Below are positions 4,301 through 63,989 of a stretch of DNA of 64,000 nucleotides, piece after piece. A program made the position numbers and the translations under genes. Below the pieces are notes generated by a model, which saw nothing but the letters and a program-made list of their open reading frames with translations, made no database searches and was not told the DNA's origin. The stretch is taken from the NCBI GenBank assembly GCA_018398765.1, contig JAHBMJ010001394.1:17933-81932 (forward strand). The letters are read 5' to 3'. Position 1 is the first letter of the stretch, and the number at the start of each line of letters is the position of its first letter. Origin of the DNA: Chromera velia (lineage: Eukaryota; Sar; Chromeraceae).

Positions 4301-7300
4301 ATGGCCTCCTTGCCCGTGTCTTCTCCGCCTCGGACTTCCTCAAACTCCTCCTGGTCCGGCTATCTCCCTGATTTTTGTGTATTGTCTTTTGTTTGTGCTT
4401 GCGTTGCATTTCTTTCGTTGTCTCTTTCGTCCTTTTTTACTTCCCGTCCTGCTCAGTCTCTTAGTCCGTTTGTCGGCCTTTCGGTCTCTTTGTCTCTGTG
4501 TGTTTTTGTGAGTCTCGCTGTTTGTTTCTCTTTGGGCCCCCTTCCGCGCCATCTCGTTGGTTGTTCTTCTTTCAGTCGTCAGTTTTCAAGTTTAGTTTCT
4601 TCTTATGTCTGTCAATCTCTCCACCTTTCTTTCTGAATGCGACTTCACACACAGAGAGCGGACCTTACCAAGCATGTGGAGCAACAGGAGGTCGGTCGTC
4701 TGGACCGATGGTATTATGATGAGAACATACAGAAAGGCAAATGTAATCTCGTGACGTGGAAGAGCTTTCTGCATATCATTCGCTGTTTCTTTTCTTCTTC
4801 TGTCGATCTGTCTTCCTCTCAGCCAGTTGCGCTCTCTCTCTGTCTCTCTCTCTCTCTCTGTGGGGAGGGGGGGCACTATGTGCGCCACATCGAGTCCGAT
4901 TCAGTTTCGGGGTGATGTGAAGCCACCGTCGTTTCTCCCTTTTCCCCCCCCTTCAGCCGGCTGCCTCCCGTCCTCTCGAACGACTTTACATGGCTGCATC
5001 GTACGCTTCCTTTCTTCCTGGTTTCCTTGCTTTCTTCCTTCCTTCATTCCCTTCTTTCTTTCTTTCTTTCTTTTCTTTCTTTCTTTCTTTCTTTCTTTCT
5101 TTCTTTTTTCCTTCCTTCCTTTCTTCCTTCCTTCCTTCCTTCCTTCCTTTCTTCTACCCACTTCTTGGAACTGCAAGCAAGAGGCGACTTCGGAAACATG
5201 CAGCTGCAGTCTGGCTGTCAGCGTGGCTAGCCAGCTGCAAATCGGAAGACCCTCTCTCCCTTTCATCCCCTCCTCTCTTCTTTCTTGACTTTGCAGCGCC
5301 GTTTCTTTTCCGGCATGGTGGCAACTGCAGAAGCAGGCACGGCGTTGACCCTGTTGGAGTCAGAGACTTTGGTTAAGGCACTGCACGTGATGGACGTGAG
5401 GTCCTTCTCTGGTCAGTCTGTCTGTCTGTTTGTTTGTCCATCTGGGTGAAACTCGGTAAGTAAATAAGTGAGGAGCATTCCCATCTTTGTTGTTGGAGGC
5501 TTTCGGTGTACACCGGGTGTAGGTTACACGGCGGGTAGGCAAACTGGGAGTCTGATATCTCTCTGTGAGTATGTTTGCACGGATTTTCGTTTTTTTCTTT
5601 TTCCTCCTTCAAGCAATTTGCCGGTTACGATTTCACGAACGACATTGTCATCATACAGTTTGTTTTGAGGAGACAGTATACCATGCAGGAAACAAAAATC
5701 CTGCCTGGATGGTCTGGGGGAATGCGAATCCGAGAGAGAGATTGGAAAAGTGGAAGACGAAAAAGAAAGGCCGCCGCTGAATGGTCATGCACGAGTTTTT
5801 CTTTCTGTGTTTGTCCAGTTCGGCCGTTGACATTGTTCATACCTTCTGGCCTGCATCACCAGTTCTCTCATTTATTGTTTCCCTTTTCACTTTCTTTCTT
5901 TCTTTCTTTCTTTCTTTCTTTCCCTTCCTTCCTTCCTTCCTTCCTTCCTTCCTTTCTTTCTTTCTTTCTTTCCTTCCTTCCTTCCTTCCTTTCTTTCTTT
6001 CTTTCTTTCTTTCTCTCTTTGTTTGTTTCTTTGTTTCTTTTCTTGAAGGAATTCCCATCGTGTCTGAAAGAGACCCGACGAAAGTTCTCGATGTGGCCAC
6101 GGTGACGGATATCGTGGTGGGTTGCTTCGTTGGTTGGTTCGTTGGTTGGTTGGCGCGTTGGTTGGTTGGTTGGCGCGTTGGTTGGTTGGTGCGTTGGTTG
6201 GTTGGTTCGTTGGTTGGATGGTTCGTTGGTTGGCTGGTTGGTTCGTTGGTTGGTTGGTTCGTTGGTTGGTTGGTTCGTTGGTTGGTTGGTTGGTTCGTTG
6301 GTTGGTTGGTTGGTTCGTTGGTTCGTTGGTTGGTTGGTTCGTTGGTTCGTTGGTTGGTTGGTTGGTTGATATACTGCTGGCACTTTTGTGACTGAATGGT
6401 TGAGAGGGAGAGACTTTTGGGTCAAATATTTCTGTATGTTTCTTTCTCTGCTGCCGTGTTTTCGTTCGATCGTCTCGGCAGAACTCCGAGGCTGTGCTGC
6501 AAACGATATGCATGCACCGTCTCTCCCCCAAATGAAACACATACACACACACACGATCTTGAAACAAAAAAGATCCATCCGTCTACTCCCGTACACGCAC
6601 GCTTTCTCTGGTTCTTGGCTTTCTCTTTCTTGCTCTCCTTCTGGTTTGCTTTGCTTGTGGTTTGGCTGCCTCTCCCTGCACTATGTGTGACCTTTTTGGT
6701 GGCGCCTGTCTGAACGTCTGTCTTTTCCCCTTTTGTCCATCTCCCTTCCCATCCCTCCCTTCCTTCCTTTTCTTTTGGCTTGGCGTGGTTCCCTTGCCTG
6801 CCTGCCTGGCAGAGCGTTTCTTTGCCATGCCTTGACTGCTGTGCTGCGAAATCATCATCGGATTGCACTCCCCTCCTTTACGCTTCTCCTTTCTTCTTTT
6901 TTCTGCAGCATTTGTTTGACGTTCAGCAGAGGGAAACCTCCAGGGACATGCTCAACGCGCCGGTGGTAGGCCGCCAAAGAGTGTGTGGCAGACATTTTAT
7001 CTGCTGCCTCTTTTGAAGTATGAAGAGAGTGTGTTCCGAATGAGTCATACACATGGGCAGCTTCCGGGAGAAACAAACAGGCAGTACTGAACGGAAAAGG
7101 CTAATTCTTGTACATTCATTGTTGTGCTTGAACAACTTTCTCTCGGCTGCTCTTGTTTTCCTCTTTTGAGGATTTTCGCTCTTTCTCTTGCGCCGTCCAT
7201 CTTCGATCGGTTTTGAGGAAGCCTTCCAAGTCTCTTTTGAGAGTGCATGTTTTTTTTGTTTGATGTGCAGATTGAACTGAGGTGGGCGTGTGTGGTGTGT

Positions 7301-63989: not shown

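What the first reader, a model, noticed from the sequence alone, without database searches (positions are those of the whole stretch)
6117..63391. Tetranucleotide arrays that copy and extend the 5' splice site
Many introns, on both strands and in unrelated genes, begin with tandem units matching the donor itself. Examples are GTTG/GTTC at 6117, GTCA then GTTC/GTTG at 8056, GTCTG at 2104 and 20222, GTCCTTCC at 10383, GTCAGTCAG at 12836 and 16475 (minus), GTGAGTGAG at 37647, GTGAGTGAGC at 49904, and GTCAGTCAG at 63391 (345 bp). Replication slippage at splice donors, or intron growth from repeat-born donors, would explain this. Each array presents many potential donors in a row, which might make splice choice flexible.
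Basis: partly seen in the sequence, partly recalled or inferred. Interest (0 to 1): 0.72.

Follow-up and report, generated by a model that had tools for sequence, protein, structure and literature searches.

The report
Splice-site-anchored tetranucleotide repeats in introns
In this eukaryote's genome many introns open with four-letter repeats that copy the splice signal itself, and a mirror pattern leads up to the intron's end, most simply because the splice signal acts as a permanent seed for copying slippage.

Summary
A self-trained gene finder on 264 kb plus 13 chaperonin-gene blocks gave 237 introns of at least 60 nt. GT recurs in donor register at +5, +9, +13, +17, +21, +25 with frequency .595.300.228.177.152.148, against .01-.11 off register; the exon side is flat. 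Perfect 12-nt runs start at +1..+9 4.1 times more densely than in intron interiors. Of ten cited sites, seven are supported as donors and three unresolved; at 10383 the repeat does not copy the donor.

Best explanation: slippage seeded by the donor hexamer GTNNGT, itself 1.5 tetranucleotides and kept by selection; free bases are copied too, and without GT at +5 no register appears. Flexible splice choice is unsupported: homology favours the first unit at two arrays, and the next two units shift the frame. Intron birth from one array is unsupported. The donor consensus is GTCAGT (+3 C 54%) although U1 is canonical. RNA-seq and strain comparison were unavailable.

The parts
2104..2126 (+). donor GTGGGT followed by (GTCT)n from 2108; intron 2104-3070
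   Evidence: gene model
3049..3070 (+). acceptor-side array (ATGG)n running into TGCAG
3597..3610 (+). acceptor-side TTGCATGCATGCAG of intron 3126-3610
6117..6368 (+). donor GTGGGTTG and a 252-bp degenerate (GTTG)/(GTTC) array; donor in frame at the end of a CBS-like domain
   Evidence: (CBS E 0.002, below the curated cut-off)
8056..8095 (+). donor GTCAGT passing into GTTC/GTTG/GTCG units
10383..10408 (+). donor GTCTGT next to (TCCT)n; the repeat does not copy the donor
20222..20247 (+). donor GTATGT then (GTCT)n; a PPR repeat crosses the junction in register with the first unit
37647..37679 (+). donor array GTGAGTGAGTGGGTGAGTGAGTGAG
   Evidence: gene model
63037..63391 (-). donor AAG|GTCAGTCAG... 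and a degenerate (GTCA)n array of about 355 bp; ankyrin repeat fixes the donor at 63391
62142..62166 (-). acceptor-side array ...ATGAATGAATGCAG of the intron whose donor is 62682 (-)
12814..12836 (-). (GTCA)n at a donor-like edge; not called as an intron, unresolved
16465..16476 (-). (GTCA)n at a donor-like edge; not called as an intron, unresolved
49902..49912 (+). 11-nt GTGA run; no gene model here, unresolved

Best explanation
Tetranucleotide slippage is a dominant mutational habit of this genome's non-coding DNA. The donor core GTNNGT is already one and a half copies of a tetranucleotide, and purifying selection keeps it in place for splicing (established principle). It therefore acts as a seed that does not decay, and repeats can grow only into the intron because the other side is coding. 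The same holds, mirrored, at TGCAG acceptors. Shown: register, sharp edge at the donor, copying of free positions, dependence on the +5 GT, a mirror pattern at acceptors, and better domain scores for the first unit at two sites. Inferred: that slippage, not donor recruitment from old arrays, made them, and the direction of growth.
For: GT in register decays from +5 to +25; bootstrap intervals of the difference (n=226) exclude zero at +9, +13, +17, +21 and +25. Exon side flat: GT at -4 .034; period-4 identity .27-.30 in exon against .44 at +7..+24. +3=+7, +4=+8, +7=+11, +8=+12, +11=+15 and +12=+16 all exceed shuffles, p<=.0005, n=141. No register without the seed: 10 of 96. Periods that are not multiples of four show no rise after the donor. 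Acceptor TG at -5, -9, -13, -17, -21, -25, -29 is .705.338.262.173.194.203.190, above the three positions between. Whole genome: 5' edges of (GTCA)n of 16 nt or more start in donor phase 2,481 times against 1,952, 1,763 and 1,332 for the other phases. Pfam-anchored chaperonin introns: GT at +5, +9, +13 in 18, 9 and 6 of 24.
Against: Interior GTNNGT left edges extend almost as well (GT at +9 .216 against .300 at donors) and unfiltered interior decoys as well or better (.321), so the donor-specific part is modest. Among left-edge donors perfect runs of 14 nt or more were not in excess over same-hexamer decoys (0 of 88 against 2.9 expected); that filter drops 54 of 142 GTNNGT donors, among them the four with perfect runs of 16 nt or more. 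GT persists after a unit whose free bases changed more than in left-edge decoys (37 of 96 against 45 of 203, p=.004), which pure copying does not predict, though not against all decoys (170 of 553, p=.15). A sense-strand bias of interior repeats (97 against 37, p 2e-7) shows that something tied to transcription or splicing also shapes them. In the strictest set, with both splice sites next to Pfam matches, GT stands at +9, +13, +17 in only 4, 2 and 0 of 14. No strain comparison: slippage was not seen directly.
Confidence: 0.64

Rival explanations
1. Introns are generally rich in tetranucleotide repeats, and the donor merely marks the first place where they are tolerated; the register follows because a repeat touching GTNNG must agree with it.
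For: Mid-intron period-4 identity is already .372; same-hexamer interior decoys show similar extension; acceptor flanks match donor flanks.
Against: Run starts are 4.1 times denser at +1..+9 than inside introns, and donors exceed left-edge decoys (.300 against .216).
Confidence: 0.22
2. The repeated GTNN units are selected: stacked donor-like copies help recruit U1 or another factor, or serve as back-up donors.
For: GT is kept after units whose free bases differ, more than in left-edge decoys (37 of 96 against 45 of 203); arrays keep register in unrelated genes.
Against: Mismatches between units 1-8 do not spare GT significantly (157 NN against 119 GT at donors, 2,297 against 2,121 in decoys, p=.12). 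No GT excess at +9 without GT at +5. Back-up units at +4 and +8 shift the frame. -1 G is .69 in array and non-array donors alike.
Confidence: 0.08
3. Arrays came first: expansions of (GTCA)n, which hold both GT and CAG, create or move introns and donors.
For: (GTCA)n holds GTCAGT and TCAG; genome-wide 3' edges also favour ending in CAG (2,217 against 1,727-1,814).
Against: Ends of one intron do not share units (5 against 4.0 expected of 220, p=.37), and array length is unrelated to intron length. Array donors sit inside conserved chaperonin, ankyrin and PPR genes.
Confidence: 0.05
4. Artefact: the gene finder pulls exon ends to the first GT of a repeat.
For: The coding model dislikes repeats; it misplaced at least one donor (63259 instead of 63391).
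Against: Same register in 24 chaperonin introns whose donor lies within 20 nt of a Pfam match end, in the high-confidence subset (n=92), and domain scores at 20222 and 63391. The one misplacement shown lies downstream, inside the array.
Confidence: 0.01

Closest known systems
Tandem donors four bases apart (GYNNGY, delta-4) of human and mouse (PMC2423196; passages read)
   Same: The consensus GT at +5/+6 is a second, mostly unused donor four bases on, and using it shifts the frame. That paper's Table 4 gives GYNNGY at 47% + 5% of constitutive human exons.
   Different: Here the register runs on to about +25 with copied free bases, and acceptors mirror it. Nothing is known here about use of the extra donors.
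Microsatellites made by replication slippage
   Same: Units copied head to tail, degenerate, not seen on the exon side of the junction.
   Different: The arrays are phase-locked to a functional signal that serves as seed, at both intron ends. Length variation was not tested.
Intron gain by repeats or introner elements (recalled)
   Same: Repeat units hold GT and AG.
   Different: The two ends of an intron do not share a unit more than chance; sequence shared between different introns was not searched for beyond the exon flanks. Not filed here.

Membership tests
Delta-4 tandem donor (GYNNGY) | GT at +1 and +5 | tested here: met
   .595 of 237 introns
Delta-4 tandem donor (GYNNGY) | both donors are used in transcripts | not testable with these tools
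   no RNA-seq; homology favours the first unit at 20222 and 63391
Slippage microsatellite | head-to-tail copies, whole unit copied | tested here: met
   +3=+7 and five further pairs above shuffles, p<=.0005
Slippage microsatellite | length varies between alleles or strains | not testable with these tools
   one genome, no relatives held
Intron born from a tandem array | both intron ends belong to one array | tested here: not met
   5 shared against 4.0 expected of 220, p=.37
Canonical U1-dependent GT-AG introns | U1 5' end of the canonical sequence | tested here: met
   U1 begins AAACUUACCUGG in L051 and L052; the donor's common C at +3 would not be paired by it (recalled pairing scheme)

The most novel reading that the evidence does not exclude
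Splice sites are permanent nucleation points for microsatellites. In a genome with strong four-base slippage, both intron ends are continually rewritten as extensions of the splice signals, and the consensus itself (GTCAGT, TGCAG) has drifted towards units that tile well, so that mutation bias helps set a lineage's splice consensus. The spliceosome must then pick the first of many near-identical donors.
Probability: 0.25. Interest if true: 0.75.

Novelty: new variant of a known kind. Interest (0 to 1): 0.52.

Why it matters
The donor consensus GTRAGT is self-similar at distance four, so any genome with active four-base slippage might grow decoy donors from its own splice sites. This genome would let one measure that mutational load directly. 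It would also let one ask how a spliceosome chooses the first of many near-identical donors, and whether mutation bias can shape a splice consensus (here C at +3 with a canonical U1).

Tried and rejected
Whole-intron birth from one array: not supported by the end-sharing test. Compensation by a stronger exon end at array donors: -1 G is .69 in both classes (78 array, 137 non-array donors); -2 A is lower in array donors (.36 against .48). Selection sparing GT in the copies: not significant (p=.12). Long perfect arrays in excess at left-edge donors over same-hexamer decoys: not found. A changed U1 that would explain C at +3: U1 is canonical in L051 and L052; a third, partial U1-like copy, L053, lacks the canonical 5' end. 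U6 has the usual ACAGAGA in the two copies read, L054 and L055, of seven found. [quoted passage not shown] Literature: the listings showed no paper on splice-site-locked tetranucleotide arrays; most subscription papers are not in that library. PMC4201569 (passages read) has nothing on such arrays.

Limits: the gene finder is my own, order-3, started from 39 kb of long ORFs of this genome and not filtered for transposons. Of 243 introns, six under 60 nt were dropped for most counts; 92 have well-scored exons on both sides. Some calls are wrong: 63259 (-) lies inside an array, and a C3586 donor is called four units into an array and is doubtful; a search of the gap behind it for a missed exon found nothing convincing. 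In one search minus-strand loci were turned the wrong way; corrected.

Full report
What was checked. The window is G000:C1392:17933-81932 of a 177.8-Mb assembly in 4,040 contigs; its name is not given. Period 4 is the strongest short period of the whole window (.377 self-identity against .26-.28 for odd periods and .317 for period 2), so any claim about donors needs controls inside introns. With no annotation at hand I wrote a small HMM gene finder (coding and non-coding order-3 models, donor matrix -3..+6, acceptor matrix -15..+3), started it from 33 long ORFs (39 kb), retrained it on its own calls and ran it on the window plus twenty 10-kb samples from other places: 173 introns. I then applied it to 13 blocks around chaperonin (PF00118) exons found by Pfam search, which were not used for training: 70 more introns. 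Twenty-four of those 70 have a donor within 20 nt of the end of a Pfam match, and 14 of these also an acceptor within 20 nt of the start of one.

The donor side. In 237 introns of 60 nt or more, the dinucleotide GT occurs at +5, +9, +13, +17, +21 and +25 with frequency .595.300.228.177.152 and .148; at the positions between it lies between .01 and .11. The bootstrap interval of the difference (n=226) excludes zero at +9, +13, +17, +21 and +25, not at +29, and again narrowly at +33 and +41. The exon side shows no such register: GT at -4 is .034, at -8 .084, at -12 .076 and at -16 .055, with the positions between at 0-.08, and period-4 identity steps from .27-.30 in the exon to .44-.48 at +3..+24. 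The slight excess at -8 and -12 includes calls that lie inside arrays, such as 63259. Without the window GT at +5, +9, +13 and +17 is .559.279.201 and .157 (n=204); in the chaperonin blocks .629.343.229 and .157 (n=70); in introns with two well-scored exons .576.315.207 and .174 (n=92). In the Pfam-anchored 24, GT stands at +5, +9, +13 and +17 in 18, 9, 6 and 3; in the stricter 14 in 10, 4, 2 and 0.

What kind of repeat. The unit is copied whole: among 141 donors with GTNNGT, +3 equals +7 in .596 (shuffled .361) and +4 equals +8 in .496 (.291); the next two units behave alike. Where GT is missing at +5, GT at +9 is at the interior level (10 of 96 against 350 of 3,568). Both speak for copying from a seed rather than for a required GT every four bases. 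Against this, GT at +9 is kept after a changed unit more often than at left-edge decoys (37 of 96 against 45 of 203), though not more than at all decoys (170 of 553). Interior GTNNGT sites at the left edge of a run extend nearly as well as donors (.216 against .300 at +9), and unfiltered interior sites as well or better (.321). Very long perfect runs are not in excess at left-edge donors, a class that leaves out 54 of 142 GTNNGT donors, the four longest among them. So the donor is a good seed in a genome that slips everywhere, not a unique engine.

TG stands at -5, -9, -13, -17, -21, -25 and -29 with .705.338.262.173.194.203 and .190, above the three positions between; intervals (n=230) exclude zero at each of -9 to -29, not at -33. 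Examples in the window are ATGGATGGATGCAG (ends 3070) and TTGCATGCATGCAG (ends 3610). TG at -5 is common even without TG at -9 (98 of 157), so TGCAG is a consensus of its own. Genome-wide, runs of TGCA of 16 nt are followed by G, as at an acceptor, 614 times and by C, the expected transition, 371 times; A was not counted.

Whole-genome check without annotation. All 5' edges of perfect (GTCA)n of 16 nt or more were counted by phase: starting with GTCA 2,481, AGTC 1,952, CAGT 1,763, TCAG 1,332 (two of the four come from the tool's backward-read control, which for this unit is the same repeat on the other strand). The 3' edges are more even: ending in G 2,217, C 1,814, T 1,766, A 1,727. Both totals agree (7,528 and 7,524). 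G-preceded starts number 1,359 against 774 for the mirror transition. The excess of donor-phase starts, about 800 over the mean of the other phases, fits donors, but point-mutation bias may contribute, and no exon is known at these places.

Which unit is used. At 63391 an ankyrin repeat reads ...VDVRDK|FGMTPLHLA with the first unit; Ank_4 scores 58.1 bits, 24.6 with the second unit (frame lost) and 48.8 with the fourth (in frame, four residues added); the shorter Ank model hardly separates first and fourth (70.5 and 70.2). At 20222 a PPR repeat scores 22.3 bits with the first unit in the fragment used, has no match with the second and 12.9 with the fourth; in the longer protein PPR_2 reaches 38.2 bits, over its cut-off, with its best stretch across the junction. 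At 6117 a CBS-like domain ends at the junction and does not discriminate (21.3, 21.3, 19.5, all under the cut-off). The third-unit joins were made but not scored; for ankyrin and PPR they hold a stop early. Copies one and two units in therefore act as out-of-frame decoys in the cases tested; in human genes such four-base shifts often make targets of nonsense-mediated decay (PMC2423196, passages read). How the first unit is preferred is unknown: the exon's last base is not more often G at array donors (.69 in both).

The donor consensus. C at +3 is the commonest base (54% of 243; 53% of 137 donors with no GT at +9, +13 and +17; 13 of 24 Pfam-anchored donors). The usual consensus is GTRAGT (PMC1779574, start of abstract seen in the listing). 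The U1 copies L051 and L052 keep AAACUUACCUGG, which would not pair with C at +3 (recalled scheme); U6 has ACAGAGA, whose G could face +3 (recalled model, not tested). So GTCAGT, which tiles perfectly as (GTCA)n, is the local donor even where no array follows.

Verdict. The best reading is seeded slippage, with the donor kept as a seed by selection. Flexible splice choice and intron birth are not supported. The length variation between strains that would prove slippage could not be examined.

Noticed in passing
introns of window, L001-L020 and chaperonin blocks: Interior tetranucleotide runs (140) are strand-biased in the sense of transcription: CTGT 19 against ACAG 2, GGTT 9 against AACC 0, CCTT 14 against AAGG 4, but AAAG 17 against CTTT 16; orientations with fewer A 97 against 37 (p 2e-7). 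This may reflect avoidance of CAG decoy acceptors or transcription-linked mutation.
   Followed up: partly
sample of 243 introns: Donor consensus GTCAGT with C at +3 in 54%, although U1 has a canonical 5' end; acceptor consensus TGCAG with T at -5 and G at -4.
   Followed up: partly
L007:4600-8100: Tandemly repeated exons up to 95-96% alike over 75-80 nt before the donor, followed by unrelated intron starts; exons may be homogenised while introns turn over quickly.
   Followed up: no
window 13658-14281: Higher-order tandem repeat of 178 bp, 3.5 copies, 97% matches, holding CAGA units.
   Followed up: no
window 17346-17419 (+): A tRNA gene lies about 500 bp upstream of a PPR-protein gene model.
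   Followed up: no
L053 (G000:C1068:14490-14640): A U1-like copy without the canonical 5' end, 36.4 bits, perhaps a pseudogene or variant.
   Followed up: no
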